Shown here: in pieces, positions 1,667 to 21,889 of the stretch
Layout: the number at the start of each line of letters is the position of its first letter
Numbering within the stretch: the first letter of the stretch is position 1
Origin: a virus
Direction: 5' to 3' (one strand)
Length of the DNA stretch: 21,889 nt
IMG/VR virus record: IMGVR_UViG_3300032299_001363
Location: 1-21,889 of that record
Made by a program: the position numbers and the translations under genes
Notes under the pieces: model-generated
Seen by the model: the letters and a program-made list of their open reading frames with translations, nothing else
Databases searched by the model: none
Told to the model about the DNA's origin: nothing

Positions 1667-1865
1667 AGAAGATATAAAAACATCTAATGAGGGGGGGAGT
1701 GAACAACTTTCCCCTTCTTATTTTTATATTGAAAATGGAAAATATGTTTTTACAAAAGAATTTCATTTAAATCGAGGACACTGTTGCGGAAATCAATGCC
1801 GTCACTGCCCTTTTTTTCCTGCTTACAAAAAAGGAAACACAACTATATTTATAGACAATGGCTAA
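1653..1865 (+). CDS. Small Cys-rich DUF5522-like protein
   Basis: The frame encodes a short protein whose core, an Asn-Gly / Val-Phe-Thr / Tyr-or-Phe-His-Leu block followed by Arg-Gly-His-Cys-Cys-Gly-Asn-x-Cys-Arg-His-Cys-Pro, matches what I recall of DUF5522, a family of roughly 50-60 residues common in Bacteroidetes. Its four cysteines (CC-x3-C-x2-C) suggest metal binding, but no function is established. The start is uncertain because there is no in-frame ATG. I chose GTG 1653, which has GGTGG just upstream. GTG 1623 is also open. If the seven-G run at 1691-1697 really had eight Gs, ATG 1687 would be the start and would give a protein of about 59 residues. The stop overlaps the next gene by 8 bases, and the 5' end overlaps the reductase by 14. 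It could be a host-derived accessory gene. Confidence 0.62.
   Translation: MKLNKEDIKTSNEGGSEQLSPSYFYIENGKYVFTKEFHLNRGHCCGNQCRHCPFFPAYKKGNTTIFIDNG
1846..1853 (+). promoter_or_regulatory. TATTTATA motif ahead of gp25-like gene
   Basis: The octamer TATTTATA ends 4 bases before the ATG at 1858. It is one member of a set of TATTTA-type motifs found ahead of several cluster-leading genes in this window. Here it overlaps the 3' end of the Cys-rich gene. A promoter role is inference. If it acts as a -10 element, the transcript would be nearly leaderless. Confidence 0.3.
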
Positions 1866-2324: not shown

Positions 2325-4166
2325 ATGGCTCAAAGAAAAATTTCATACACGGTAAGAGATTTCCAAGCAATTCGTCAGGAACTTATCAATTATACGAGAA
2401 CGTATTATCCAGAATTAATTGACAACTTCAACGACGCTTCGGTTTTTTCTGTGTTTTTGGATTTGAACGCAGCCGTTGCTGATAACTTACATTATCATAT
2501 TGATAGAAGTATTCAAGAAACTGTTCTTCAATATGCACAACAACGTTCATCAATTTATAATATCGCAAGAACTTATGGATTAAAAATTCCTGGTCAAAGA
2601 CCATCTGTTGCCTTGGTTGATTTTTCAATTACAGTACCAGCGTTTGGTGATAAAGAAGATGAAAGATACTTGGGTATCTTAAGACGTGGTAGTCAGGTTA
2701 ACGGAGCGGGACAAGTATTTGAAACAATATATGATGTAAACTTTGCATCACCATTTAACCAAGATGGTTTTCCAAATAGATTAAAAATACCAAATTTTGA
2801 TGCCAACAATAACCTTATTAATTACACAATCACAAAAAGAGAAACTGTGGTTAATGGTATTACAAAGGTATTCAAAAGAGTTATTACACCAAATGACGTG
2901 AGACCTTTCTTTGAATTTTTCTTACCTGAAAAAAACGTGTTGGGTATTACATCGATTATTCAGAGAGAAGGTACCGCATATTCAAACGTACCAACATCTC
3001 AAGAATTTTTAAGTCCAAATGGAAGATGGTATGAAGTACAAGCCTTGGCTGAAGATAGAGTGTTTATTGCTGACCCATCAAAACCATCTGATGACCCAGC
3101 AATTAAAGTTGGGACTTATATTCAAACACAAGACAGATTTATTACAGAATACACACCTGAAGGTTTTATGAAAATTACTTTTGGTGGAGGAACCAATACT
3201 GCTGAAGACCAATTAAGACAATTCACAACTTTGGATGTTCCTTTGAAAATTCAAAGATATCAAAACAACTCAATGTCTTTGGGTAATACACCACAAGCAA
3301 ATACCACAATGTTCATTCAGTATAGAATTGGTGGTGGTTTGGCAACAAACTTGGGTGTGAATACAATTACACAAATTGGGGCGGTTGATTTTTCAGTTGT
3401 CGGTCCATCTGATATAATCAACAACCAAGTTATTAATTCACTGACTTGTAATAACGTAACTGCAGCAATCGGTGGTGCAGGTTATCCATCAACTGAAGAA
3501 GTTAGAAATTATGTAACATTTAATTTCGCAGCTCAAAACAGAGCGGTAACGATTCATGATTACGAAGCGATTATAAGAAACATGCCTGGTGAGTTTGGAG
3601 CTCCTGCTAAAGTATCAATTACTGAAAATAATAATAAGATTAATGTTCAGGTTTTATCGTATGATGCGAGTGGTAATTTAACATCAGATGTTTCACAAAC
3701 ATTGAAACAAAACTTGGCGGAATATTTATCAAACTATCGAATGATTAATGATTATGTAACCATTGGTAGTGCTCAGGTTATTGACTTGGGTGTTGAAGTA
3801 TCTATCGTATTAGATTCGGCACAAAACTCAGGTGTTGTTATTTCAAATGTTATTGATAGAGTTACGACATTCTTTAGTCCTGCTGTAAGAGGATTAGGTG
3901 AGAATATTGTTCTTTCAGAATTAAGTAGAATTATCCAAGCAGAAAATGGTGTTATCAGTTTGACGGACCTTTCAATTTATGGAAAGGTTGGGGGACAATA
4001 TAGTTCTGCACAAACATCGATGCCATATTCAGATGATGCGACAAAGAAAATATCATTAACGGATAACACAATATTTGCTGAACCAAATCAAATCTACCAA
4101 ATAAGGTTCCCATCTAAAGACATTGTGGTTAGAGTTAAGAATTATCAGACAACTACATTTAGTTGA
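2325..4166 (+). CDS. gp6: Baseplate wedge protein, gp6/baseplate J-like
   Basis: This is a T4 gp6-type subunit that forms the ring of the inner baseplate and clamps the wedge proteins. The N-terminal 90 residues carry the family pattern: Tyr-Thr-Val-Arg-Asp-Phe, a Tyr-Pro-Glu-Leu block, then a helix with Asn-Leu-His-Tyr-His-Ile-Asp and the Ala-Arg-x-Tyr-Gly-Leu-Lys motif. A J-like core includes Phe-Gly-Gly-Gly-Thr (286-290) and Arg-Ile-Gly-Gly-Gly-Leu-Ala-Thr-Asn-Leu-Gly (334-344). A block with Arg-Ala-Val-Thr-Ile-His-Asp-Tyr-Glu (406-414) follows. Its length of 613 residues is close to the 660 of T4 gp6. It ends in TGA. It lies 5 bases after the gp25-like gene and is probably co-transcribed with it. 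A TATTTAA at 2313-2319 includes the upstream stop codon. Confidence 0.92.
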   Translation: MAQRKISYTVRDFQAIRQELINYTRTYYPELIDNFNDASVFSVFLDLNAAVADNLHYHIDRSIQETVLQYAQQRSSIYNIARTYGLKIPGQRPSVALVDFSITVPAFGDKEDERYLGILRRGSQVNGAGQVFETIYDVNFASPFNQDGFPNRLKIPNFDANNNLINYTITKRETVVNGITKVFKRVITPNDVRPFFEFFLPEKNVLGITSIIQREGTAYSNVPTSQEFLSPNGRWYEVQALAEDRVFIADPSKPSDDPAIKVGTYIQTQDRFITEYTPEGFMKITFGGGTNTAEDQLRQFTTLDVPLKIQRYQNNSMSLGNTPQANTTMFIQYRIGGGLATNLGVNTITQIGAVDFSVVGPSDIINNQVINSLTCNNVTAAIGGAGYPSTEEVRNYVTFNFAAQNRAVTIHDYEAIIRNMPGEFGAPAKVSITENNNKINVQVLSYDASGNLTSDVSQTLKQNLAEYLSNYRMINDYVTIGSAQVIDLGVEVSIVLDSAQNSGVVISNVIDRVTTFFSPAVRGLGENIVLSELSRIIQAENGVISLTDLSIYGKVGGQYSSAQTSMPYSDDATKKISLTDNTIFAEPNQIYQIRFPSKDIVVRVKNYQTTTFS

Positions 4167-4239: not shown

Positions 4240-7200
4240 ATGCCTGAAACAATTAGAATAAAAACACAGGTCGGGGTCGACAGAGAAATTAATATTCAAT
4301 TAGACCAAGATTTTGAACAACTTGAAATACTTTCGTTAAAAGTAAGGTCGGAAGACGTTTACACAAGAATGTGTGCCGATTATGGTATTGTAGTTGGTCG
4401 TGTGGTTGCCAATGGAGGTTACGGGGTTCCAAATGTTAAGGTTTCGGTATTTGTTCCATTAACAGAAGATGATGCCAACAATGAGATTATTTCAACATTA
4501 TATCCTTATACATCATTAACCGATGTTAATGAAGATGGTTATAGATATAATTTATTACCTTACGAACAACAATATACCGGTCACATACCAACAGGAACTT
4601 TTCCAACAAGAAATGATGTATTAACAAACCCAGCCGTTATTGAAGTATATGACAAATATTATAAATTCACTGTAAAAACAAACGGAAGTGGTGACTATAT
4701 GATTATGGGGGTTCCTGTCGGAACTCATACTTTAGTAATGGATTGTGATTTATCAGACATCGGTCCTTTTTCACAATCACCACAAGATTTAATCCGTATG
4801 GGTAGGGCAAGTGCCGACCAATTAGATGGAGTCAATTTTAAGTCATCAACAAACCTATATTCATTACCACAAATTGTTAATATCAATCAAAGTGTGGATG
4901 TTAATCCATTTTGGGGACAACCTGAAATTTGTCAAATTAACATTGCAAGAAATGATTTTGATTTAAGAAGTGTAGGTATCAATATCCAACCAAGTGCAAT
5001 ATTCATGGGTTCTTTGGTGACAGGTATTGATGATGAGGCGGTTGAAAAGAATTGTAAACCACCAAGAGATATGGGTAATCTTTGTAATTTATCTGTGGGA
5101 CCTGGTGAAATTATTAGTGTTAGACAAACAATATTCCAAGATACTCAAGGAAGACCAATATTGGAACAAGGTACATTACCACAAGGTGGTAAAGTTATTG
5201 ATGGTGATGGTACTTGGGTTTTGGATGTCCCTATGAATTTGAATTATGTTGTTACAAATGAATTTGGTGAACAAGTATTCAGTCAAGACCCAACAGTAGG
5301 TATTCCAACAAAAGGAAAATATAGATTCAAAGTAAAATACACGCAACCAACAAGTTTTGAAACTGAGGAAGTAAGACGAGGTTATTTTTTAGTACCAAAT
5401 ATTAAAGAATATGGTTGGGTGAATGCTGATAATGACCCGGCATATATTATAGATACTGATGATATTAATTATAAAAAATTCTTAGGTTCGTATTATTTTG
5501 GAACTGATTGGAGTGGATATACAAATCAAGCCGATGCGATTGCATGTAAAGATACGTTTTATGAAATGGACTATAATAAAGTTTATACCGTATCACAACA
5601 TTATGACCAATATAAAAAAGGATTTAATAGGTCTAAATTTATTGGTATAAAAGAAATTACTGATTCATCATGTGCTAGTGAAAACAATAAATACCCAGCA
5701 ACTGACGGTGTTCAAAGTTTTGACTTTTTTGTGTTTTTATTAAACATATTATTACCAATAAACTATTATATATTATTGGTACTTGTCCCCGTTTTACACG
5801 TTTTGGCTTTTATTTGGCCACTTTTTAGACTTTTATTCACGTTTGTTTATGGTGTTATTGCTTGGATTATTTACGGAATTTGTAAGGTTGTTGATGCGAT
5901 TCCTGGAATTAGTCTTGATTGTCAACAACCACCATCATTTGGTGATATTTTTGACACTATTGGTGAACCATTCAAAAAAATAACACTACCAAGTATCAGT
6001 TACCCCGAGTGTCAGTTGTGTGATTGTGGTGGTAGTGAAGAGACTGGAAACAACCCAACAACACAAGATGTTGAACAAGAGTCATCGTCTAATGTTGTTT
6101 CGCCAAACGCCGATTTTTTTACGTCAACAAATTGGATAACGGGTGATGAAACATTTCAAATCACATTGGCTGGTACTGGTTTTAACAATGCAACATTAAA
6201 GACACCTGTTTATCAACCAACAAATAGTGGATATAGTTTTATTAATAATTTACCAATTTGGGAAACTGTAAATAAGTTTAACTTAAAATCAAAATATTTT
6301 GATTCAGATGTTTATCCAGGTTCAAATAGAATAAAAGTTGTTGTCGAACCAACATTAAATGGAACAAACCCTAATTTATTTCACTATGATAATGTTATGG
6401 TATTATTTGTTGACCCAGGTATTTCATCAAATTTAACCTCAGGTCAATTATTAAGTTTCCAACAATCACAACTTTCAAATGACCCTAACCCTAAGGCGGT
6501 ATCAACAGGTGATACTACAGGTATTACAGGAACAACCAAACAAGGTCAAACAATTCAAGTTAATTATGCTGACCCAACAACACAGACATTAAAAACTGTA
6601 AATTATGTATTGAGTGGTGCATCAAGTGCTCAAACCACTAATTACAAGTTTTCAAGTGATATTGAGTACTTCCAAGTAATTACAGGAACAACGTATGACG
6701 AGTTTGTTACAAATAATTCTAACACATTATCAAGTAGTTTATATAATCAAATTTCACAACAAATAACTTTCTTCAAAAATCAAGGTGTTGATATTGATAC
6801 AAATAGTTATGGTAATTATTTAGAAAATTGGGCTGGTGGAAATTTAGGTATGATATTTTTAGTTAGAGGTGTTGACCCTAACAGTGGTAGAAAGAAAATT
6901 AAATACGACTTATCAAGAATTTTTGGTAACAATGGATGGGGTAATCAAGTAATTACTGGTGATTTTTATTTGAATATTCCGGTACAACCTGGGTTGAAAA
7001 ATGTTAGACACGATGAATTTACAGACAATATTCAAAACAATTCGGGTTATTTGTATTATCCATCGTATACATTTACTGCAGGAACCCAATACTCGGCATA
7101 TACTACAAACTTACAACAATATTATTCATCATTAGACCAAAAACAAATTAATGTATTCAAACCAACATCGAATAATAATACATTATTAACTATTTCAATG

Positions 7201-9021
7201 GTTAATGTTGGTGGTTCAGGTGAATTATTAGCAAAACAATTTACACCAAATGGGGTTGGATATAAAGGAAGTGAATATATCGAAGGTGGTTCATATGTTT
7301 ATTATAATCCATACGCAACGGTTACACCTTTTAATGGTGATAATAATAATGGTATGTTACCGGCTATTTATTTTGCACCAAAATATCCCGCAAAAAATTT
7401 GACAATGTACAGTCAAAGATTGGTAATGAGAAGTGATAGATTGCCAACTGGTACACAACCTGAAATAAATGAAAATAATAATTATGCGGGTCAAGCTTCA
7501 GATAATTTAACATATGTTACAGTAACTGATAATGGAAATTCGGCAATCACGGGAAGTGCTTCAGGCGCCGGTGGAGTTAATCCAACAGATAATCCTGATG
7601 TGACTACAGGTGGAACAATTAACAAGGTAATTGATTCTTTCTCATGTGCTGGTATGGTTGATTTATCATGTTATACAAATCAAAATGGTGAGTTTATTGT
7701 TTTACCAAGTACTAATGCATGTAATAATAATTCTGGCGGTGAAATAGTAAAAAATGGTTGTTATGTTTTGGTAAACACACCTATATTAACATTAGCAAGT
7801 GATTGGGCGTCTTTATACCAGTGGTTACAAAGATTTAGAATGAATTTTGCAATTTGTAGAGGTGTGTTATCACATACCTTTGTAAACTCTTGGGTTAATG
7901 GTTCATTATTTGCGTTCCCATTTACATCCAAAGTATTTTTTGATTCAAACAACAGACCATTTAATAGAAGAGTGTCGAGAAATTTAATCACAGGTAACAG
8001 AGAAGTTAATTATTTGTTTTGTGGTGACCTTTTAATGTTTGAACCAACATCAAATAATTTTTACTATCGCTCAAGCCCATATAACGGAACTAATTTTGTT
8101 GGTGGAAGAGCGTCAACATCTTTCTCACAACCAGTTAATACTAAAAACATTTTGTTCCCAACAACATTATTGGACATGGGTCCTAAATATTTTTGGCAGA
8201 GTGAGGTAAATAAAGACCCTAATTATTTTGGATACCAAATGAATAAATTCAATTCAACTTCTTGGAGTGATGATTCTAATTTGTTACAACTTTTTGTTGT
8301 GTCAAGATTAGTTAATCAGAGTTTCTTACAAAGTCTCACAGGTGCAATTTTAGGTGTTGGTGGTGTTGGAGCATTATTCAGTAGACGTGAAGATAGAGTT
8401 GATGGTGATTTTGCTCAAATGTTACAAATTAATTCACAATACGGTATTGTACCATTTACTGCGGAAAATTATCCTGATGACCCAAATGTTGTTGGAGACA
8501 ACCCAATTTATGTTGGTGGTGATAAGAATGGTGGTCCCGTGTTTGGTGTTTTTTATAGTGGTTATAGTGAAAATAGAGATTTAATATCACCAAGAAGAAT
8601 TGATAGAACATTTACAGGTACTACGTTAGTTGCGGATTACTTGGGAACCAAATCGCAAGAAGTTCCTTTTTATAAGTGGAACAATAATGCGTGGTTAAGA
8701 GGAGAACCAACTATTTTTGGTAGTCAAGACAATGAATGGTATACATATGGTGGAAACCCAATTGTCGACAGTAAAAAATACCAAGAATTTGATAGAAGGC
8801 TACAACCCTTTTTCCAAGGTAATAATAACTTGATACAAAATGCTTATGGGTATATCTACCAAAGGAATCTTGATGGTACTTATAATAAAGTACCAACAAC
8901 ACCAACAAATGAACGCACACTAACAAGTGCTCCATGGTATTTTTACTTTGGATTAAAAAGAGGAAAAACCGCAATGGATAAATACGTACAACAATATTTA
9001 GGAACAGAACCAAATGAGTGA
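4240..9021 (+). CDS. Giant structural-type protein with carboxypeptidase-regulatory-like N-terminus and hydrophobic segment
   Basis: I cannot assign a named family to this 1593-residue protein. Its place directly after gp6 and within a run of structural genes suggests a tail or baseplate component. Residues 48-170 resemble a carboxypeptidase-regulatory/transthyretin-like beta domain: Val-Gly-Arg-Val-Val-Ala-Asn-Gly, a Pro-Asn-Val-Lys-Val-Ser-Val strand, a Thr-Asp-Val-Asn-Glu-Asp-Gly-Tyr turn, then Gly-Asp-Tyr and Val-Pro-Val-Gly-Thr-His. Residues 496-551 are almost wholly hydrophobic, long enough for two membrane helices. Cys591, Cys594 and Cys596 form CxxCxC. The remaining 950 or so residues are Asn/Thr/Tyr-rich beta-type sequence, with a Gly-rich hydrophobic patch at 1365-1379 and a C-terminal Tyr-Phe-Tyr-Phe-Gly-Leu-Lys-Arg-Gly-Lys-Thr-Ala motif. 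There is no signal peptide. The stop overlaps the next start by 8 bases. Confidence 0.8.
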   Translation: MPETIRIKTQVGVDREINIQLDQDFEQLEILSLKVRSEDVYTRMCADYGIVVGRVVANGGYGVPNVKVSVFVPLTEDDANNEIISTLYPYTSLTDVNEDGYRYNLLPYEQQYTGHIPTGTFPTRNDVLTNPAVIEVYDKYYKFTVKTNGSGDYMIMGVPVGTHTLVMDCDLSDIGPFSQSPQDLIRMGRASADQLDGVNFKSSTNLYSLPQIVNINQSVDVNPFWGQPEICQINIARNDFDLRSVGINIQPSAIFMGSLVTGIDDEAVEKNCKPPRDMGNLCNLSVGPGEIISVRQTIFQDTQGRPILEQGTLPQGGKVIDGDGTWVLDVPMNLNYVVTNEFGEQVFSQDPTVGIPTKGKYRFKVKYTQPTSFETEEVRRGYFLVPNIKEYGWVNADNDPAYIIDTDDINYKKFLGSYYFGTDWSGYTNQADAIACKDTFYEMDYNKVYTVSQHYDQYKKGFNRSKFIGIKEITDSSCASENNKYPATDGVQSFDFFVFLLNILLPINYYILLVLVPVLHVLAFIWPLFRLLFTFVYGVIAWIIYGICKVVDAIPGISLDCQQPPSFGDIFDTIGEPFKKITLPSISYPECQLCDCGGSEETGNNPTTQDVEQESSSNVVSPNADFFTSTNWITGDETFQITLAGTGFNNATLKTPVYQPTNSGYSFINNLPIWETVNKFNLKSKYFDSDVYPGSNRIKVVVEPTLNGTNPNLFHYDNVMVLFVDPGISSNLTSGQLLSFQQSQLSNDPNPKAVSTGDTTGITGTTKQGQTIQVNYADPTTQTLKTVNYVLSGASSAQTTNYKFSSDIEYFQVITGTTYDEFVTNNSNTLSSSLYNQISQQITFFKNQGVDIDTNSYGNYLENWAGGNLGMIFLVRGVDPNSGRKKIKYDLSRIFGNNGWGNQVITGDFYLNIPVQPGLKNVRHDEFTDNIQNNSGYLYYPSYTFTAGTQYSAYTTNLQQYYSSLDQKQINVFKPTSNNNTLLTISMVNVGGSGELLAKQFTPNGVGYKGSEYIEGGSYVYYNPYATVTPFNGDNNNGMLPAIYFAPKYPAKNLTMYSQRLVMRSDRLPTGTQPEINENNNYAGQASDNLTYVTVTDNGNSAITGSASGAGGVNPTDNPDVTTGGTINKVIDSFSCAGMVDLSCYTNQNGEFIVLPSTNACNNNSGGEIVKNGCYVLVNTPILTLASDWASLYQWLQRFRMNFAICRGVLSHTFVNSWVNGSLFAFPFTSKVFFDSNNRPFNRRVSRNLITGNREVNYLFCGDLLMFEPTSNNFYYRSSPYNGTNFVGGRASTSFSQPVNTKNILFPTTLLDMGPKYFWQSEVNKDPNYFGYQMNKFNSTSWSDDSNLLQLFVVSRLVNQSFLQSLTGAILGVGGVGALFSRREDRVDGDFAQMLQINSQYGIVPFTAENYPDDPNVVGDNPIYVGGDKNGGPVFGVFYSGYSENRDLISPRRIDRTFTGTTLVADYLGTKSQEVPFYKWNNNAWLRGEPTIFGSQDNEWYTYGGNPIVDSKKYQEFDRRLQPFFQGNNNLIQNAYGYIYQRNLDGTYNKVPTTPTNERTLTSAPWYFYFGLKRGKTAMDKYVQQYLGTEPNE
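5725..5892 (+). other. Hydrophobic, membrane-like segment inside the 1593-aa protein
   Basis: Residues 496-551 contain only two charged or strongly basic positions (His520, Arg530) and are rich in Leu, Ile, Val and Phe. Prolines at 506, 517 and 527 break the segment. It is followed by Lys549 and Asp552. By eye it could form two or three membrane-spanning helices, which is unusual for a structural protein made in the cytoplasm. It is the only such stretch in the window. Confidence 0.7.
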
Positions 9022-12618: not shown

Positions 12619-13527
12619 ATGGCAACAGGAACATACGGAACCATAAGACCGGCTGATGTATCACCCGAAGATGTGCAAATCATCATGAACTACACTCCAT
12701 CGAGAGATGTGACAAATGACTTTGTGTTAACACAATTGGATGCTACATCTATTTTAAGACCATATTTCAATAATGCCGCCACAGGTGGTAATACAAATGA
12801 AATACTTGGTGGATTATATAACTTAAGATTACCAGCCGAAACATTTACTCAACTTGGTATATACACATTGTATATTAGACCTGCAGAAATTAGAACATCA
12901 ATTACAGATTGTGGTGTTTTATCGGCACTTCCAAACGTAAAAGGTATTGTAATTGATTTATCAAACGTACCAAGTCAATTTGCAAATAAATTTATTGCTC
13001 AAGGACTTGTTGGATATAGAGTTGAATATCTAAATGCTGACGGTAGTAAAATACCAAATTTCTTTAGAATTGTAACGTCAAATTTTTATTGTGAACCTGT
13101 TATTCAAAATTTAACAAATACACAACAAAAGGCGGTAAGATATAGATACACTGAAGGACAAACTAATTTGGTTTTCTGTACACTATCTCCAAGTTCATCA
13201 CCAACAAACAAACCAAACGCAACACCATTTATTGGTCAACCTGCACAAAGTATTATTTTATCAAACACATATTTTAATCCTTTGACTTTAGAAGTACAAG
13301 TATCACAATATGATATTGATACGTTGGGTATTGCACTTTATGGTAACCAAACCAAATCTATGGAAGATGGTATCTACACAATTTACGACACCCAAAATAA
13401 CATTTACTCACAATTTAACCTTTACGAAATTAAAGATGACTTTAACAATCTTCTTTATGAAGTTAAAGAGAATAGAAATACAAACATTGATTTCAGTAAG
13501 AGTTACACTAATATCACAGGACAATAA
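12619..13527 (+). CDS. Unknown phage structural-type protein (302 aa)
   Basis: I do not recognise a family. The 302 residues are Thr/Asn-rich with alternating hydrophobic positions. There are two well-separated cysteines in the first half (98 and 158), and a Tyr-Thr-Leu-Tyr-Ile-Arg-Pro-Ala-Glu block (82-90). A Thr-Leu-Ser-Pro-Ser-Ser-Ser-Pro-Thr linker near residue 190 separates two halves. No signal peptide or membrane segment is seen. The gene opens a new unit after a 53-base gap and ends in TAATG, sharing a base with the gp7-like gene. It may therefore be made in step with that wedge protein. A role as a baseplate or fibre-connecting subunit is inference from position only. Confidence 0.75.
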   Translation: MATGTYGTIRPADVSPEDVQIIMNYTPSRDVTNDFVLTQLDATSILRPYFNNAATGGNTNEILGGLYNLRLPAETFTQLGIYTLYIRPAEIRTSITDCGVLSALPNVKGIVIDLSNVPSQFANKFIAQGLVGYRVEYLNADGSKIPNFFRIVTSNFYCEPVIQNLTNTQQKAVRYRYTEGQTNLVFCTLSPSSSPTNKPNATPFIGQPAQSIILSNTYFNPLTLEVQVSQYDIDTLGIALYGNQTKSMEDGIYTIYDTQNNIYSQFNLYEIKDDFNNLLYEVKENRNTNIDFSKSYTNITGQ

Positions 13528-16481
13528 TGGCTAAGAAGTACATCCCAATTGGCGCGTCAGGAGCACAAACACCATTTGATAATTTGGTGGGTAATCAGAC
13601 TGTGCAAGGTGGTGGACTTACACAAGGTAACTTTGAATGGAGTTATGGTATATCTGAAAAGAACAATAGAAATTTTAACATTGGTGTTTTCCAATTACCT
13701 GTTTCATTAGAAGATTTGAATCTTGAATCTGTTAATCAGTCAAGAGAATTAATTGCAAAAGAATATAGGGTTTACCCAAATTTTGATTTATCAAATGTTA
13801 CAAATTTTACAATATTTGGTTCATTACAAAAAAGATTTGAGGTATCGGTTCAAAGAATAATTAATTTCTTTCCCGCAGGTATTGAAGTTGATGATTACTA
13901 TTATGATTTTACATCAGGTGATACAGCAACTGGAATTACATATAGTTCTGTTTCAAATGAAACGGAATTAACAATTAATGTTAGTAGAATAAAGAATCCA
14001 TTCTCATTAGATTATTCTACTAATTCAAAAATTAATTTACAAAATAGAGAACAAGAATTTTCTCCATTAAGAGATTTAACAAACACATATAGAAATTATT
14101 CGTTAGTTGTTGATGATATTCCTTATCAAGTTATTGATTTAACACCATCAAATAGTTTATATAGTGGTGTAATAAAATTGGTGGTTATTGGTGACCCATT
14201 TAGTGGTGCAAGTACGACTGTTAAATCATTAGTTATTAGACCAAATGATTACTATGTTGAAAAAGCCTTTTCTGAGAATTTTGATGAGGTTGAAAAATTC
14301 TTACTAAATAGATTAGCACAACCACCATATACGGCAACATTTAATGTACCTATTCAAACTGATGGAGGTGCTGTTGAATTACAAAATGCCACAGTTACTT
14401 GGCCAAAAGATGGTTTATGGAACTTAGATATTAGAACACCTTTATTTACGACTTATCTTGAAAAGTTAAACATAATTGGTGTTGATTTTGATGCGTATAA
14501 GACAAACTTAATAACCAGGTTTATGGTTACAGATTCTTTATTGGAGTTTGATACACCTGACCACAAAGTTGCTAAAGTATTACAAATTTACGGTAGAAGT
14601 TTTGACCAAATAAAAATATTCATAGACGCGTTGGCGTATATGAATTCGGTCAACTACACACCGGGTAATGATATTCCGTCAATGTTATTGAAGAACTTGG
14701 CTGAAACATTAGGTTGGTCACCAAACATTTCACCAATAACAAATGAGGATTTCTTAAATTCTGTTTACGCTGCTACAGGTGTAACACAATACGCAGGATT
14801 TTCAAGAGAGTTAACACCATCAGAATTAAATTATCAATTCTATAGAAACTTAATTCTTAATTCGGCTTATTTGTTTAAGTCAAAAGGTACAAGACGCTCA
14901 ATTGAGTTTACCTTAAGATTAGTGGGTGCTCCTGATGCCTTAGTTGAGTTTAATGAGTATGTTTACGTTGCGGACCAAAGAATTAATATGAGAGAATTTA
15001 ACACACAATTCGCTCAAATTACTGGTGGTACATATGTTGAAGATACTACATCTTACAATTCAGGTGTTACATTTTCAATTTACGGAACTCAATATAGTGG
15101 ATTCACATCATCAACGGAAACTTTTTTAGTTACTGAAACAAGAGATAGTTATCCTGTTGATGAGTTTGGTTATCCACAAGCTCCTGCCAATACTGAAAAT
15201 TATTTCTTTGAAAAGGGTGCTGGATGGTTTGAATCGACACCACAACACAGAAGTCCTGAAGTTGTAAATCAAACTTCATCTGTTTTTACAGGTAATAGTC
15301 CAAACGTTCAAACAACCTTACAACCATTTAGTTATGGACAAGAATATTTCAACAGATTTAGAAATTTCCCATACATGAATTTGGGATTCAATTTGAAGTT
15401 AGTTCCTGACAATAAAAAAAGTTGGCAACCACCTGTATTAAGAGTAAGTACCCAATCAGGATATAATGCTTATTATGTTGTACCATCAGATAATTTGGTG
15501 TTAAATGCAAAGAATGTTGATTTGTTCTTAAACCCTGGTCAAGGTATTCTGTATAACATATGGTCAATGTCAAAAGATTACAACTACCCAATACCAAATA
15601 GCGGTATGACACCAACTTATCCAAGTTATGGTAGTTATGATTGGACATTTATCAATCCACAACCAAACAAGAAGACATTTTTTGAGTTTGCTCAAACATT
15701 TGTTCAACAAACAATAAATGCTAGAACAAGATGGTATTCGTCAGATGGTAAAACCAGTGGATATCCTGATTTATTAAACATTTATTACAATTACTTGTTG
15801 TCAGATGAGAATGTTGGTATTCCTAACGATAATTTCACATATCAAAAACTTATTGAGTATGTTGATGGATTGGGTCCATATTGGATTCGTCTGACACAAC
15901 AAATGATTGCCGCGTCAACAATTTGGAATACTGGTACAAGATTAGAAAACTCACCACTCCAAAGACAAAAATTTGTTTATAGAAGACAAAGTGGTTGTCA
16001 ATTAGTTCCTATTACAAATGACCCATGTATCGCTCAAGGTCAGTTATTTAGTTATGATTGTACCACTGAAAGTGCTTCATGTTTAATATATCCTTGGATT
16101 GGAAATCAAGTATCGGATGTTAGTTCTTTTTCACAAGTATTATATTCTGTTTTATATAATTACTTAAATACACAAGGATATCAATTGTCGCAATGTTTAA
16201 CAGATACACTGTATTCACAGTGGTATGTTGATGTTAAGATTAATGGTTCTCAAGTAATACAAAGTAAATTTTTTGAAGGTTATGGGACTTCACAAGTTCC
16301 AACCAATAATCAATGGAAAGCCGCATTGTTATTTAATTTATCACAATTAATTAACGAAGGATATTATTTCTATGTGAATGGAAATACTGTAACCGTATAT
16401 AATTTAACTTGTGTTGGTACAACTGAAGTTACTACCATACAAATAAACGTTGGTGTTAATATAGACATTACTTGCCAATAA
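13527..16481 (+). CDS. Baseplate wedge candidate with gp7/P2 gpI-like segment and duplicated C-terminal domain
   Basis: Residues 386-480 resemble the region shared by P2 gpI-type tail proteins and the C-terminal part of T4 gp7. The segment has a Leu-Leu-Lys-Asn-Leu-Ala-Glu-Thr-Leu-Gly-Trp helix, an Arg-Asn-Leu-Ile-Leu-Asn-Ser-Ala helix, then Lys-Ser-Lys-Gly-Thr-Arg-Arg-Ser-Ile-Glu and Leu-Arg-Leu-Val-Gly-Ala. That pattern marks proteins linking the baseplate hub or wedge to fibres. The length (984) is near the 1032 of T4 gp7. Residues 866-984 form a separate domain that recurs in the next gene's C-terminus. The remainder is beta-rich and not recognised. The start shares a base with the upstream stop. 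The gp7 role is likely but unproved; a tail-protein-I role in a long wedge protein is the alternative. Confidence 0.78.
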   Translation: MAKKYIPIGASGAQTPFDNLVGNQTVQGGGLTQGNFEWSYGISEKNNRNFNIGVFQLPVSLEDLNLESVNQSRELIAKEYRVYPNFDLSNVTNFTIFGSLQKRFEVSVQRIINFFPAGIEVDDYYYDFTSGDTATGITYSSVSNETELTINVSRIKNPFSLDYSTNSKINLQNREQEFSPLRDLTNTYRNYSLVVDDIPYQVIDLTPSNSLYSGVIKLVVIGDPFSGASTTVKSLVIRPNDYYVEKAFSENFDEVEKFLLNRLAQPPYTATFNVPIQTDGGAVELQNATVTWPKDGLWNLDIRTPLFTTYLEKLNIIGVDFDAYKTNLITRFMVTDSLLEFDTPDHKVAKVLQIYGRSFDQIKIFIDALAYMNSVNYTPGNDIPSMLLKNLAETLGWSPNISPITNEDFLNSVYAATGVTQYAGFSRELTPSELNYQFYRNLILNSAYLFKSKGTRRSIEFTLRLVGAPDALVEFNEYVYVADQRINMREFNTQFAQITGGTYVEDTTSYNSGVTFSIYGTQYSGFTSSTETFLVTETRDSYPVDEFGYPQAPANTENYFFEKGAGWFESTPQHRSPEVVNQTSSVFTGNSPNVQTTLQPFSYGQEYFNRFRNFPYMNLGFNLKLVPDNKKSWQPPVLRVSTQSGYNAYYVVPSDNLVLNAKNVDLFLNPGQGILYNIWSMSKDYNYPIPNSGMTPTYPSYGSYDWTFINPQPNKKTFFEFAQTFVQQTINARTRWYSSDGKTSGYPDLLNIYYNYLLSDENVGIPNDNFTYQKLIEYVDGLGPYWIRLTQQMIAASTIWNTGTRLENSPLQRQKFVYRRQSGCQLVPITNDPCIAQGQLFSYDCTTESASCLIYPWIGNQVSDVSSFSQVLYSVLYNYLNTQGYQLSQCLTDTLYSQWYVDVKINGSQVIQSKFFEGYGTSQVPTNNQWKAALLFNLSQLINEGYYFYVNGNTVTVYNLTCVGTTEVTTIQINVGVNIDITCQ
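16122..16478 (+). repeat. Copy 1 of a C-terminal domain shared by two adjacent proteins
   Basis: Residues 866-984 of the gp7-like protein align by eye with residues 711-833 of the following SprB-like protein. Shared positions in order are Cys-Leu, Tyr-x-x-x-Val-x-Val-x-Gly, Gln-Ser-x-Phe, a Gly, Pro-Thr-x-x-x-Trp-x-x-Ala, a Leu-Leu pair, Asn-x-Val-Thr or Ser-x-Val-Ile-Thr, and a terminal Ile-x-Cys. The similarity is at the protein level; the DNA is not closely alike. Confidence 0.65.
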
Positions 16482-16493
16482 ATTAAAATTTAG

Positions 16494-16500
16494 TATTTAG
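16494..16500 (+). promoter_or_regulatory. TATTTAG motif ahead of SprB-like fibre gene
   Basis: The 23-base gap 16482-16504 contains TATTTAG ending 4 bases before the ATG at 16505. It is a weaker member of the recurrent TATTTA set. The same heptamer occurs at 4195. Regulatory function is inference. Confidence 0.22.
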
Positions 16501-16504
16501 AGAT

Positions 16505-19006
16505 ATGGCTTGTAGTACTTGTATTAGGTGGATGGTTTGGAACGAATCGGATTCCAATCAAACATTTTATTATTATGATTGTAATGATGGAACAACATTA
16601 TTAAGTTCACTTATTGGTGCTGGTCAATTTTCTAGTGTTTGTGGATGCCAAGCAAGTGGTTCTTATGCTTCAAGTATTGACGTTTATATTGAAGATGGTG
16701 GTACAGGATATATCAACTACAATGGTTTCCTTTTACCACCTTGTGAGCTTACACCATCACCAAGTATAACGCCAAGTTTATTTCCAACAAGAACACCAAA
16801 TTACACACCGACTCAAACACCAACCGTTACTGCAACACCAACTTTAACACCAACACAAACAGTAACACCAAGTAATTACCCAACTCCAACACCAACGTTA
16901 AGTGGTTTTGGTAATGGAAACGCTTTCGCCTATAACTTAAACATAACAGGTACTTGTGTATCATCATTGGGTGCCATTCAAATCACAGCATCAGGTGGAA
17001 CAACACCTTATACTTTTGATTGGTACGACCCTGAATTAGGTGTTGGGTCTTATAAAGATAATTTACCTGCGGGTGTTTATTATATTAGAGCCAACGACGC
17101 TACAGCACCTGTAAATAATGAATTTTATATAACTGCGATAGTTGATGATTCGTTAGGTGTTGATTTTATTAACATAACAAATACGACTTGTGGATTAGAT
17201 AACGGTAGTATGACAGTATCGGCAGATACAAGTAATTTGAACATCACTTACTACATCTACAACAATGGAAATTTAATTGCAACTCAAAGTACTAACAATG
17301 GTATTGCGATTTTTGATTCATTATCTGCAGGAACTTATTCAGTAACGGCAATTAGTGATGGTGGATGTACGGCAACTACAGAAACCTGTATTGTTTATTC
17401 ATCAAATACACTAGACTTTGGATTCTACATTGTAAATGATACACAATGTGCTAGCCCAACAGGTAAAGTTTATGTAACAGGGGTTACAGGTAACTCACCA
17501 TTCACATATTTGTGGAGTGACTCAACAACAGGAACATCAATTACGGGTTTGACTCAAGGTGTTTATACTTGTACTGTAACTTCAGGTGATGGTTGTGTAC
17601 AAACAAAATCCGCTACAGTTGATTATGTACCTTCAGTCGGATTAGGTTCTTGGAGTGCTCAGACACCAACTTGTTTTACATCGGACGGAGCCTTGTTATT
17701 AACAATAACAGGTGGAACAGGTCCATATTTTTACTCAGGTTCAAACGGAACTTTTGTAGTTACTTACGCTCAGGATTATTTGTTCACAGGTTTGTCTGCA
17801 GGACTATTCAGTGTATTGGTTACAGATGCTGCACTTTGTAAAATCCAATTCGACACTACAATCCAAACGCCAAATTCTTTTTATAGTGTAGAAATTGATA
17901 CCGTAAACTCATCATGTAGTAGTACCAATGGTCAAATTTTGGTTTCTTTAGTTGGGGGTTCAGTCCCTTATACATATACGTTAGTAAAACCAGATTCAAG
18001 TACGGTTAGTATTACATCAAATTCTGAAGTTCAAACATTTATCAATTTAAGTAGTGGTGATTATACAGTTTTTATCCAAGATGGTAGCAATTGTTCATAT
18101 TCTCAAGATGTTTCAATAATTGCTGAAAATTTATATAGTGTAACAACATCATATACTGGTGGAACTTGTAGTAATAATGATGGTACAATTGGGTTATTAT
18201 TATCAACAGGTGGAACGGCACCTTACTTATTCCAATTAAGTGATGGTTCGTCAATTAATTCATCGTCATTATATGTGACCTTTAATTCGTTAACATCAGG
18301 TAATTATACCTACACAGTTACCGACTCAAATGGATGTACTCAAACAGGTATTGTAACACTCCCAATATCATCTAATGTTAATTTCTCATTATATCCAACA
18401 ACATGTGGAACAGGTGACACGGGAAGTATTACCGCTTTGATTACATCAGGAGAACCACCATTTACATTCTTATGGTCAGATAATATTCCAAGTAATCCTC
18501 AAAACATTTATGTTTCAGGTCTTACGGGTGGAACATACTCTTTAACAATCACCGATAGTAATAATTGTGTTCAAACAAGAAATACAACAATTAGTTGTAA
18601 TGCCATTCAGTCAACCTATCAAATTTATACAATGTGTGAAACTGATTTTACTTTCACATCAGGTACACAACGTGGAATATTACAAATGTTAAATGAAGGT
18701 TTTAATGATTTAACATTGGGAAATACAAATTGTTTATTAAGTTCTGCGGTTTATGTTGCAGAAGTTGTTGTAAGTGGAAACACATATCAACAATCTTTTT
18801 ATACAGGAACAACATTGTTAGATATACCAACAGACCAAAATTGGTATGACGCGGTTGAAACATTATTATTAACAATACCAGGTGTTTCTGCAGTATCTGT
18901 GGATACAAATTCAAGTGTAATAACAATTCAAACAGAGGGAGACCTTGCAAATCAACAAGTGGTAATTGATTTGATAATTCAATATGATATTAATTGTGAA
19001 TCGTAA
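16505..19006 (+). CDS. Fibre/adhesin with seven SprB-like repeats
   Basis: This 833-residue protein is probably a tail-fibre or receptor-binding adhesin. Residues 1-81 form a Cys-rich head (CxxC at 3-6; Cys26, 46, 48, 80). Residues 82-133 are a Thr-Pro-rich linker. Residues 141-700 hold seven repeats of 75-85 residues with the SprB pattern: Thr-x-Cys, an Asn/Asp-Gly-x-Ile strand, Gly-Gly-Thr-x-Pro-Tyr-Thr-Tyr, Leu-x-x-Gly-x-Tyr-x-Val-x-Val-x-Asp, then Gly-Cys or Asn-Cys. Residues 711-833 repeat the C-terminal domain of the upstream gp7-like protein. SprB is a cell-surface gliding adhesin of flavobacteria. There is no signal peptide or type IX secretion C-terminal domain here, which fits a virion protein rather than a secreted one. 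The stop shares a base with the next start. Confidence 0.82.
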   Translation: MACSTCIRWMVWNESDSNQTFYYYDCNDGTTLLSSLIGAGQFSSVCGCQASGSYASSIDVYIEDGGTGYINYNGFLLPPCELTPSPSITPSLFPTRTPNYTPTQTPTVTATPTLTPTQTVTPSNYPTPTPTLSGFGNGNAFAYNLNITGTCVSSLGAIQITASGGTTPYTFDWYDPELGVGSYKDNLPAGVYYIRANDATAPVNNEFYITAIVDDSLGVDFINITNTTCGLDNGSMTVSADTSNLNITYYIYNNGNLIATQSTNNGIAIFDSLSAGTYSVTAISDGGCTATTETCIVYSSNTLDFGFYIVNDTQCASPTGKVYVTGVTGNSPFTYLWSDSTTGTSITGLTQGVYTCTVTSGDGCVQTKSATVDYVPSVGLGSWSAQTPTCFTSDGALLLTITGGTGPYFYSGSNGTFVVTYAQDYLFTGLSAGLFSVLVTDAALCKIQFDTTIQTPNSFYSVEIDTVNSSCSSTNGQILVSLVGGSVPYTYTLVKPDSSTVSITSNSEVQTFINLSSGDYTVFIQDGSNCSYSQDVSIIAENLYSVTTSYTGGTCSNNDGTIGLLLSTGGTAPYLFQLSDGSSINSSSLYVTFNSLTSGNYTYTVTDSNGCTQTGIVTLPISSNVNFSLYPTTCGTGDTGSITALITSGEPPFTFLWSDNIPSNPQNIYVSGLTGGTYSLTITDSNNCVQTRNTTISCNAIQSTYQIYTMCETDFTFTSGTQRGILQMLNEGFNDLTLGNTNCLLSSAVYVAEVVVSGNTYQQSFYTGTTLLDIPTDQNWYDAVETLLLTIPGVSAVSVDTNSSVITIQTEGDLANQQVVIDLIIQYDINCES
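16748..16903 (+). repeat. Thr-Pro-rich linker coding region
   Basis: Residues 82-133 of the SprB-like protein are mostly Thr, Pro, Ser and Val in Thr-Pro-Thr or Thr-Pro-Ser steps, coded mainly by ACACCAAC-type hexamers. It resembles the longer tract at 19638-20069 in both protein and DNA. It probably forms an extended stalk. Confidence 0.8.
16925..18604 (+). repeat. Seven-unit SprB-like repeat array
   Basis: Approximate units by residue are 141-216, 217-301, 302-376, 377-457, 458-542, 543-623 and 624-700. Each keeps one early and one late cysteine, which are a possible disulfide pair. The units have diverged enough that the DNA shows no long perfect repeats, so the array is old rather than recently amplified. 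Confidence 0.75.
18635..19003 (+). repeat. Copy 2 of the shared C-terminal domain
   Basis: Residues 711-833 of the SprB-like protein correspond to residues 866-984 of the gp7-like protein. A helix-like lead is followed by Cys-Leu, Val-x-Val-x-Gly, Gln-Gln-Ser-Phe, Pro-Thr-Asp-Gln-Asn-Trp-x-x-Ala and a terminal Asp-Ile-Asn-Cys. Both copies end within two residues of the stop codon. Confidence 0.65.
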
Positions 19007-19385: not shown

Positions 19386-20675
19386 ATGGCTGAAATTTAT
19401 GATATTATTGTGGTTAATGAGGCGGACGGATGTTTGAATTCGGTGACCAATCAATATACAATCACAGGATGTGACCAAACAGTTGTCGTTAAATTTGACG
19501 GAACAAATAATGCCGTTGGTCCATTTGATATTTATACAGGTTCCACAGGAACTACAGCCATTTACACAGGTGTTACAAGAACTGAAATGATATATGGGGT
19601 GGTATTAACACTTAGTGACCCATCGGCATTTTGTGGTACTCCTACACCAACAGTTACACCAACAGTTACTCCAACACCTCAAACACCAACACCTACGCAA
19701 TCGCCAAGTTTAACACCGACTAAAACTGTTACACCTTCAGTTAGTGTGACAATAACATCAACACCTACAGTAACACCAACTTACACACCAACAAATACTT
19801 TAACACCAACACCAAGTGTTACTAAAACTGCCACACCATCAGTGACTCCAACAAATACTGCGAGTCCAACGGTAACTCCAAGTAATACCGTAACTAAGAC
19901 ACCAACGGTAACGCCAACTAAAACCGTAACACAAACACCTACAGTTACGGCTAGTAATACACAAACTCCAAGTGTCACGCCAACTAATACTCAGACACCA
20001 ACAGTAACACCAACAAAAACCGCAACACCAACACCAACATTAACACAAACACCTACAGCAACTCCACCACCATTACAAGCATTAATATTTATGGAGTCTG
20101 GTGATGACGCTCTTGCAACTGGTACAATTTATAGTGATGTTGTAACATATATGATTACAACAGGTGCAACAAGTTGGTTTGGATTCCAAACAAGTGGATT
20201 ACCAAACTTTGCTAATCCTGCGGATATTGTTGATTTCAAACTTTGGATGGATTGGCCTGGATTTGTGACAGGAACAACAAACGTACCACCAACTATTCAA
20301 CAATCAATTCCTCAAACTGGTGGTGGGACTGACGCGTATGGTAACTCAATAGAGGCTTATAAATTCTTAACAACACAAATTGCTGCGAATACAACTACAG
20401 GTAATATTTATTACGTAGTGTTAGCACCATATTCAATGACAAATAATCAGGTATATTCAAATATAGGTATTAGTTATACAAATACACCAACAGTATTAAT
20501 AACAACAACTACTGACAGTGGTGTTAGAAGTGTAAATATTGGATATACAGGTCCTTATTGGGCAAATACTAATTACAGAGTTTACTCACAATCTCCAAAT
20601 AACGGATTTAATGTGGGTGCTGCTGGAGTAACAGATTCAACAAATAACTATTTCCGAGGAGGAACATTAATATAA
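19386..20675 (+). CDS. Mucin-like stalked fibre protein (429 aa)
   Basis: This is probably a fibre or adhesin. Residues 1-84 form a small beta-type head with Cys16, Cys29 and Cys83, and Gly-Pro-Phe-Asp-Ile-Tyr-Thr-Gly similar to the preceding 100-residue protein. Residues 85-228 are a stalk of about 144 residues made almost only of Thr, Pro, Ser, Val, Lys, Gln and Asn in Thr-Pro steps, like mucin stalks that carry O-glycans. Residues 230-429 form a globular tip that I do not recognise, with Trp264, Trp287, Trp290 and Trp392 and many Thr/Asn. There is no signal peptide or membrane anchor. It follows a 77-base gap with a TATTTATTA motif and precedes the collagen-like gene by 16 bases. The C-terminal tip is the likely ligand-binding part, by inference. 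Confidence 0.78.
19638..20069 (+). repeat. Thr-Pro stalk coding region
   Basis: About 430 bases of degenerate hexamer and longer repeats code for the Thr-Pro stalk (residues 85-228). Units such as ACACCAACAGTAACACC recur with third-base variation. The tract is a likely site for slippage or recombination, including with the shorter tract at 16748-16903. Confidence 0.85.
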
Positions 20676-20691
20676 CATATAGAAAGATAAC

Positions 20692-21889
20692 ATGAGTATT
20701 CCGTATAAAAATCCCACGTCAGGTGTAGTAGTATCATCACCATCATCAGTATTAAGGACAGATACTTTTGGAACAACATTTAGTGTTACCAATACAGGTG
20801 GATATATGGAAGTGTGGACACTTTCAGATTTAAATTACTCAACTTTTGGTGGAACTGGAAATATTAATAACTCCGGAAATACAATTCCTGTTACTTTTTT
20901 TAAAAGAACCGCACTTGCAATATCAGATAGATTAACCATTAATAGTGATGCTATATCTTCAGGTAGAAGAAGACTTGGTATGTTGGTTTATGTTCATGAA
21001 AATGAACAAACTTATCAATATAATATTAATGGTTACGATGCATTGTGGGATGCGGCTGTTGCTGACAATTGTATTGTAACTGCAGACACATCATATACTG
21101 TTTATAATAGAGTTGGTGGTGTTGAAAAAGCCTCAGGTCAAGCCCTTATCGCTGCTTGGACAGGTTCTACAATTGAAGGTATTAGTGGAGCTACAAGAAT
21201 AAGTGCAAATTGGAGAGTTTATTATAATGAAGGTATTACCATAACAGGTGGTACATACTATTCTGGTACAAGTATTTTAGATTTAACAAATTCAACGGGT
21301 GGTACATTTAGTGTTTCAGGATTTACGGCACCAATTACAGGTGGAACTTATAATTCAGGATTAGGAACATTAGAACTTAATAGTGCTAATGGTGGCGTTG
21401 TAACAATTACAGGATTTACAACAGGTGGTGGTGGAAGCCCACTTAGTGTTGGTGATGGTAATACATTGGTAAACAATGTTACAGGAATGACCTTCAGTGG
21501 TGCTTCAGTCATAAATAATGGTAGTGGTGCTATTACAGTTGTTATAACTGGTAGTACAGGTACTTCAGGTACTAGTGGTACGTCAGGTATTAGTGGTGTT
21601 GATGGTTCATCAGGTACTAGTGGTACGTCAGGTATTAGTGGTGTTGATGGTTCATCAGGTACTAGTGGTACGTCAGGTATTAGTGGTGTTGATGGTTCAT
21701 CAGGTTCTTCAGGAACAAGTGGAACATCAGGAACAAGTGGAACATCAGGCTCAAGTGGAACATCAGGAACAAGTGGAACATCAGGCTCAAGTGGAACATC
21801 AGGTTCAAGTGGTGAAAGAGGTACATCAGGTTCTAGTGGAACAAGTGGTTCTTCAGGAACATCAGGTTCAAGTGGTGAAAGCGGAACAT
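20692..21889 (+). CDS. Collagen-like fibre protein, 3' end cut by window
   Basis: The frame starts at ATG 20692, 16 bases after the previous stop, and runs open for 399 codons to the window edge. Residues 1-180 form an unrecognised N-terminal region, probably for attachment, with a motif Asp-Ala-Leu-Trp-Asp-Ala-Ala. Residues 184-245 are two 31-residue Ile-Thr-Gly-Gly-Thr-Tyr repeats of beta type. From residue 287 to the edge the protein is an unbroken Gly-X-Y repeat of at least 37 triplets (GTS, GIS, GVD, GSS, GER, GES), the collagen triple-helix signature without proline. Collagen-like stretches are known in phage tail fibres, where they trimerise and extend the fibre. The receptor-binding end is likely beyond the window. 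There is no signal peptide. Confidence 0.85.
   Translation, partial: MSIPYKNPTSGVVVSSPSSVLRTDTFGTTFSVTNTGGYMEVWTLSDLNYSTFGGTGNINNSGNTIPVTFFKRTALAISDRLTINSDAISSGRRRLGMLVYVHENEQTYQYNINGYDALWDAAVADNCIVTADTSYTVYNRVGGVEKASGQALIAAWTGSTIEGISGATRISANWRVYYNEGITITGGTYYSGTSILDLTNSTGGTFSVSGFTAPITGGTYNSGLGTLELNSANGGVVTITGFTTGGGGSPLSVGDGNTLVNNVTGMTFSGASVINNGSGAITVVITGSTGTSGTSGTSGISGVDGSSGTSGTSGISGVDGSSGTSGTSGISGVDGSSGSSGTSGTSGTSGTSGSSGTSGTSGTSGSSGTSGSSGERGTSGSSGTSGSSGTSGSSGESGT
21241..21426 (+). repeat. Two 31-residue Ile-Thr-Gly-Gly-Thr repeats
   Basis: Residues 184-214 and 215-245 of the collagen-like protein align with one another: Ile-Thr-Gly-Gly-Thr-Tyr, a Ser-Gly turn, a Leu-x-Leu strand, Gly-Gly, then Val-x-Gly-Phe or Ile-Thr-Gly-Phe. 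The regular beta pattern suggests a small stacked-strand shaft just before the collagen-like part. Confidence 0.65.
21565..21699 (+). repeat. Perfect 45-base tandem repeat, three copies
   Basis: Three identical copies lie at 21565-21609, 21610-21654 and 21655-21699. Each codes for 15 residues (five Gly-X-Y triplets including one GVD). Perfect DNA identity points to recent expansion, and the unit keeps the reading frame. Confidence 0.95.
21730..21801 (+). repeat. Perfect 36-base tandem repeat, two copies
   Basis: Copies at 21730-21765 and 21766-21801 are identical. They code for four Gly-X-Y triplets each and use GGA/ACA/TCA codons, unlike the GGT/ACT/AGT codons of the 45-base unit upstream. 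Partial copies flank them. Confidence 0.9.

What the first reader, a model, noticed from the sequence alone, without database searches (positions are those of the whole stretch)
16122..19003. Same C-terminal domain on a wedge protein and on the neighbouring fibre
The last 119 residues of the gp7-like protein and the last 123 of the SprB-like protein share an ordered set of conserved positions (Cys-Leu, Val-x-Val-x-Gly, Gln-Ser-x-Phe, Pro-Thr...Trp..Ala, terminal Ile-x-Cys). I know of no named domain with this pattern. A domain on both partners could pair the fibre with the baseplate, for example by forming a mixed oligomer, and would be an attachment tag that could be moved between fibres.
Basis: partly seen in the sequence, partly recalled or inferred. 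Interest (0 to 1): 0.6.

Follow-up and report, generated by a model that had tools for sequence, protein, structure and literature searches.

The report
Twin domains on phage baseplate and fibre
A baseplate protein and the fibre gene next to it, in a large and mostly uncultured group of aquatic phages, end in two ancient copies of the same previously unnamed protein domain, most likely the two halves of the joint that holds the fibre on the baseplate.

Summary
The last ~135 residues of the wedge-type protein (13527-16481) and the last 131 of the SprB-repeat fibre (16505-19006) are homologous: profile-profile probability 97.3%, E 2e-11; 100 column-shuffled controls stay far below. Both predicted folds have the same beta-alpha-beta-beta-alpha-beta-beta-beta order. 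Pfam and PHROGs hold no family for it.

Among 210 IMG/VR loci, all 171 that hold both copies have exactly one of each, on adjacent genes. Seventeen records of 67-295 kb hold these two copies only. Each class is one clade (support 100/100): one old duplication, no exchange.

What moves is the other end: the fibre's N-terminal cap is swapped between genomes while stalk, C-terminal domain and wedge copy stay together. This points to a fibre anchored by its C-terminal side. In eight contigs the wedge copy is a separate 166-residue gene, so it works as an independent part.

Docking of the two domains is the best explanation (about 0.5) but direct contact is not shown; co-evolution tests were inconclusive. 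'gp7-like' means 'baseplate protein beside gp25/gp6': the T4 gp7 profile does not match, and a P2 gpI-type motif is only suggestive.

The parts
13527..16481 (+). Wedge-type baseplate gene, 984 aa ('gp7-like'); core residues 1 to about 830, linker, then the C-terminal domain
   Evidence: ORF. It lies downstream of gp25-like (1858-2319) and gp6-like (2325-4166) genes with PHROG hits. The core is homologous to 1265-1400 aa proteins beside gp6 in Microcystis phage Mel-JY01, Flavobacterium phage immuto and LR756508.
16020..16073 (+). Linker of the wedge protein, including the motif GQLFSYDC that goes with the domain when it is a separate gene
   Evidence: Motif at residue 838; same motif inside the free-standing 166-aa ORFs.
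16074..16478 (+). Wedge copy of the shared domain (residues 850-984)
   Evidence: Profile A1; hhalign against A2 97.3%; AF2 model pLDDT 89.
16505..19006 (+). SprB-repeat fibre gene, 833 aa
   Evidence: Pfam SprB E 8.4e-25, five stretches.
16505..16744 (+). N-terminal cap (residues 1-80), an exchanged cassette
   Evidence: 88.8% identical to the cap of L012 while the stalk is 62.4%; unrelated to the cap of L002 whose stalk is 88.5% identical.
16745..16897 (+). Thr/Pro-rich linker
   Evidence: Sequence.
16901..18598 (+). SprB-repeat stalk
   Evidence: Pfam SprB.
18611..19003 (+). Fibre copy of the shared domain (residues 703-833)
   Evidence: Profile A2; AF2 model pLDDT 83; best BFVD match a 714-aa 'SprB repeat' phage protein, E 5.9e-12, TM 0.90.

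Best explanation
One domain gene was duplicated once, early in this phage group. One copy sits at the end of a wedge-type baseplate protein, the other at the C-terminal side of the SprB-repeat fibre encoded by the next gene. Most likely the two paralogous domains form the joint (a mixed dimer or higher oligomer) by which the fibre is held on the baseplate, with its C-terminal side near the virion and its exchangeable N-terminal cap at the outer end. Shown: homology, same predicted fold, strict one-to-one adjacency, single old duplication without exchange, cap exchange at the opposite end, and a natural free-standing form of the wedge copy. Inferred: physical contact between the two domains, stoichiometry, fibre polarity, and baseplate location.
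For: Profile homology with controls; same order of secondary structure and the same top two BFVD proteins for both models. In all 171 loci holding both, exactly one of each, the fibre start -16 to +37 bases from the end of the wedge-copy ORF; only these two places in 17 large records. Two clades at 100/100. Related phages whose wedge homologue lacks the domain also show no fibre copy. N-terminal caps exchanged while stalk, fibre domain and wedge domain co-inherit. In eight contigs the wedge copy is a free-standing 166-aa gene between wedge gene and fibre, so it functions as a separate polypeptide there. An extra cysteine near the start of each domain is present in both or absent from both in 96 of 99 distinct pairs. 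T4 precedent: the fibre socket gp9 binds a gp7 domain (PMC3004832).
Against: No direct evidence of contact. Partial distance correlation between the two domains (0.44, or 0.27 with the stalk also controlled) is no higher than between wedge domain and stalk (0.50), and mutual information between the two is not above wedge-core background. Both domains evolve faster than the wedge core and slightly faster than the stalk (mean distances 1.04, 1.00, 0.57, 0.90), which does not look like an especially conserved interface. About a quarter of unique fibres carry a further stretch, mostly a Thr/Pro linker and head, after the domain, so exchanged parts are not only at the N-terminus. The third-cysteine pattern rests on about three changes in the tree, too few to test.
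Confidence: 0.5

Rival explanations
1. Both domains bind the same third baseplate protein side by side, or each forms its own homo-oligomer, and do not bind each other; the duplication reflects re-use of a binding part.
For: Co-evolution between the two domains is no stronger than with the neighbouring stalk or core. The free-standing form shows that the wedge copy must bind something, not that it is the fibre.
Against: Every partner pair is on adjacent genes and one-to-one, and no third protein carries the domain; the extra cysteine comes and goes on both partners together.
Confidence: 0.27
2. The domain is an adhesion or receptor-binding head that was duplicated onto two exposed proteins and has no structural role in assembly.
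For: Both copies evolve faster than the wedge core; Thr/Pro-linked heads of other kinds are appended at several places in these proteins, including the wedge C-terminus in most of the eight contigs.
Against: No exchange of the domain between lineages or with other genes, whereas the N-terminal caps, which look like receptor heads, are exchanged freely; domain length and both cysteines are nearly constant.
Confidence: 0.13
3. Tandem duplication without shared function: neighbouring genes share a domain only because of how it was duplicated.
For: The genes are adjacent.
Against: Retention on both genes through divergence down to about 20% wedge-domain identity, across 99 distinct pairs, including after the wedge copy became a separate gene.
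Confidence: 0.07

Closest known systems
Phage T4 gp10/gp11/gp12 and gp9 attachment set, and the T4 gp10-like XD domains of CBA120 tailspike TSP4 (PMC8825819)
   Same: One domain type found on a baseplate protein and on a host-recognition protein, used for docking; T4 gp9, the long tail fibre socket, binds a gp7 domain (PMC3004832).
   Different: The XD2/XD3 domains are beta jellyrolls on the N-terminal part of the spikes; this domain is alpha/beta with two helices and sits on the C-terminal side of the fibre.
SprB-repeat proteins (Pfam PF13573)
   Same: The stalk of the fibre is made of SprB repeats.
   Different: The Pfam family covers the repeat only; the C-terminal domain, cap and phage context are not part of it.
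P2 gpI / T4 gp7 wedge proteins
   Same: Gene order after gp25 and gp6; a 'kGT..ai...l...G'-type motif; the subthreshold best place of Pfam Tail_P2_I lies in this ORF in three large genomes.
   Different: No significant match to T4 gp7 or P2 gpI profiles; the C-terminal domain is absent from T4 gp7 by these searches.
T7-type nozzle protein (gp12) platform region and Y-family polymerase little finger
   Same: Similar arrangement of strands and helices (gp12-type Z 4.8-4.9, rmsd 3.3-3.8 over 81-86; little finger Z 7.2, rmsd 3.7 over 106).
   Different: Scores are within what unrelated models reach; no sequence similarity; no claim of kinship.

Membership tests
T4 gp7 (baseplate wedge) | Sequence profile match to gp7 | tested here: not met
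   hhalign against 26 T4-type gp7 sequences: probability 0.8%; no Pfam or PHROG gp7 hit.
T4 gp7 (baseplate wedge) | Gene order gp25-gp6-(wedge genes)-fibre | tested here: met
   gp25-like and gp6-like genes by PHROGs, similar order in Mel-JY01 and immuto.
P2 gpI (Pfam Tail_P2_I) | Match to the Tail_P2_I model or gpI profile | tested here: inconclusive
   PF09684 below cut-off, E 0.07-0.11, only match in three large genomes and in this ORF, none in the window; gpI profile 0.1% but in register on the shared motif.
SprB-repeat protein (PF13573) | SprB repeats above Pfam cut-off | tested here: met
   86.6 bits against a cut-off of 28, five stretches.
T4 gp10-like XD attachment domains | Beta jellyroll fold | tested here: not met
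   The models contain helices of 16 and 18 residues (wedge copy) and of 13 and 13 residues (fibre copy), plus strands.
T4 gp10-like XD attachment domains | Same domain on baseplate protein and on recognition protein | tested here: met
T4 gp10-like XD attachment domains | Demonstrated docking between partners | not testable with these tools
   No heteromer prediction or binding assay available.
Any named domain family for the C-terminal domain | Significant Pfam or PHROG match | tested here: not met
   Pfam: none better than E 0.025 for the wedge copy; PHROGs: best 0.0011-0.0015 in isolated members, 0.017 for the window's fibre copy, families of unknown function or 'virion structural protein'.

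The most novel reading that the evidence does not exclude
A fibre-to-baseplate joint made of two paralogous domains from one old duplication, holding a fibre by its C-terminal side so that N-terminal tips can be exchanged freely, in some lineages with an inter-chain disulfide between the two halves, and in one lineage with the wedge half as a separate adaptor protein.
Probability: 0.4. Interest if true: 0.62.

Novelty: new variant of a known kind. Interest (0 to 1): 0.5.

Why it matters
How fibres of uncultured Bacteroidota-type phages are attached is unknown. This gives a pair of domains, a predicted polarity opposite to the usual N-terminal anchoring, a natural separate-gene version that can be expressed alone, and a set of exchangeable N-terminal caps that are candidate host-recognition parts. 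It turns an anonymous structural region shared by hundreds of aquatic phage contigs into a directly testable docking model.

Tried and rejected
Searches of isolated phages (tblastn, 50,697 records) with the wedge protein and with the fibre domain found nothing; a scan of 84,980 bacterial and archaeal species genomes with the fibre profile found no relative. Foldseek against PDB gave no significant match for the wedge copy (best E 0.084); the second look gave only middling Z values. A missing match is not evidence of a new fold. T4 gp7 and P2 gpI profile comparisons did not reach significance. Distance-correlation and mutual-information tests for contact between the domains were inconclusive because neighbouring regions give equal signal. 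The idea that the co-occurring third cysteines prove a disulfide was not accepted: only about three changes on the tree, and wedge Cys4 could pair with Cys113 within the domain. Literature searches found no paper on SprB-repeat phage fibres; the 'moraphage' lineage (PMC12619734) has predicted Bacteroidota hosts but could not be compared.

Full report
What was checked. The window is a 21.9-kb virus record with a gp25-like gene (1858-2319), a gp6-like gene (2325-4166; PHROG baseplate wedge, E 3e-22), several large structural genes without family matches, the 984-aa 'gp7-like' gene (13527-16481), the 833-aa SprB-repeat fibre (16505-19006) and further Thr/Pro-rich and Ser-Gly-Thr-rich tail genes. 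The two C-terminal regions named in the finding were compared with each other and with relatives.

The shared domain is real. BLASTP of the two sequences alone gives only E 0.006. IMG/VR scans returned 41 relatives of the fibre domain and 80 of the wedge protein, and a scan with the fibre profile found 318 stretches encoding a relative, of which 80 loci were kept. The two profiles match with hhalign probability 97.3%, E 2.1e-11, score 68.8, against a maximum of 21.1 in 100 column shuffles and 17.3 or less for other windows of the same proteins. AlphaFold2 gives the same order of main elements for both: strand, helix, two strands, helix, three strands (the fibre copy has one extra short helix). 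Searched against viral models, both have the same best hit, a 714-aa 'SprB repeat' phage protein (fibre copy E 5.9e-12, wedge copy E 1.2e-5) and the same second hit, a 985-aa uncharacterised protein. Two cysteines are present in every member of both alignments: residues 41 and 134 (wedge) and 41 and 129 (fibre).

Distribution. In 210 loci (some from the same contigs), 171 hold both domains; each of these has exactly one of each class and the fibre begins -16 to +37 bases from the end of the ORF that carries the wedge copy. In 17 records of 67-295 kb the two profiles find these two places and no other; the records may be incomplete. The bacterial and archaeal genome collection gave no relative. 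Phages Mel-JY01, immuto and LR756508, whose wedge homologue is recognisable (hhalign 96.5%), show neither copy in the regions examined, so the pair seems to be a feature of this group.

History. In a tree of 31 wedge-type and 30 fibre-type domains each type is one side of a branch with support 100/100: one old duplication, no exchange. This is against a movable tag.

What moves instead. Between close relatives the fibre stalk and C-terminal domain agree while the N-terminal cap is replaced: window and L002 share 88.5% (stalk) and 90.8% (domain) with unrelated caps; window and L012 share 88.8% in the cap but 62.4% in the stalk; L012 and L007 share 94.3% and 95.4% with unrelated caps. In most phages the exchanged end of a fibre is the receptor end and the conserved end is the virion end (general knowledge), so this fibre is probably anchored by its C-terminal side. 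A caution: 27 of 109 unique complete fibres carry 31-422 further residues after the domain, mostly a Thr/Pro linker and another small head.

A natural separation. In L072, L086, L097 and L119, and in a dedicated scan in eight contigs (L325-L332, which include those four), the wedge copy is a separate ORF of exactly 166 residues between the wedge gene and the fibre, with its own start and stop codons upstream of it. In most of these the wedge protein ends instead in a Thr/Pro linker, usually with a variable head. The core-gene tree places three of them (L072, L097, L119) together, as sister to the window's group, so fission is most simply derived. The domain therefore acts as an independent part.

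Contact between the two domains is not shown. Distances of the two domains correlate after controlling for core genes (0.44) but the wedge domain correlates as much with the stalk (0.50). Mutual information is not above background. One detail is suggestive: an additional cysteine near the start of the wedge domain (residue 4) and of the fibre domain (residue 9) is present in both or neither in 96 of 99 distinct pairs, with three losses in the same places on the tree. Three events are too few for a test, and wedge Cys4 could pair with Cys113 inside its own domain.

Identity of the wedge protein. T4 gp7 (probability 0.8%) and P2 gpI (0.1%) profiles do not match. The gpI alignment falls in register on RNLILNSAYLFKSKGTRRSIEF, and the Pfam Tail_P2_I model has its only, subthreshold, match in this ORF in three large genomes. 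'Wedge-type baseplate protein, possibly gpI-like' is the fair name.

Known precedents. In T4 the long-tail-fibre socket gp9 binds a gp7 domain (PMC3004832). In phage CBA120 the tailspike TSP4 carries domains of the same fold as the T4 baseplate protein gp10, used for docking (PMC8825819). Sharing a docking domain between baseplate and recognition protein is thus a known kind of arrangement; the domain, its alpha/beta fold, its C-terminal position on the fibre and the strict adjacent-gene pairing are different here.

Verdict. Observation confirmed; interpretation partly supported; docking by a paralogous domain pair is the best explanation at about 0.5.

Noticed in passing
L072, L097, L327, L328, L329-L332 (wedge gene C-termini): Where the wedge copy of the domain is a separate gene, the wedge protein itself mostly ends in a Thr/Pro-rich linker, usually with a variable small domain after it, as if the freed end had become a display site.
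   Followed up: partly
window 5716-5883 (within 4240-9021): The 1593-aa structural protein holds a stretch of about 56 mostly hydrophobic residues that looks like two membrane-spanning segments, unusual for a virion protein; T4 gp7 is annotated with a predicted membrane segment too.
   Followed up: no
window 19386-20675 and 16745-16897: Thr/Pro-rich linkers joining small domains occur in several neighbouring genes and at different positions in relatives; they seem to be a general connector for exchangeable heads in this phage group.
   Followed up: partly
window 20692-21888: Tail-fibre-like gene with long Ser-Gly-Thr (TSGTSGSSG) repeats, matching collagen-like tail fibre PHROGs, cut off by the contig end.
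   Followed up: no
window 1623-1865: An 80-aa ORF overlapping the end of the ribonucleotide-reductase-like gene contains a Cys-rich motif (HCCGNQCRHCPF) that could bind metal.
   Followed up: no
window 16074-16478 and 18611-19003: An extra cysteine at wedge-domain residue 4 and fibre-domain residue 9 is present in both or absent from both in 96 of 99 pairs; candidate inter-chain disulfide, too few independent events to test.
   Followed up: partly
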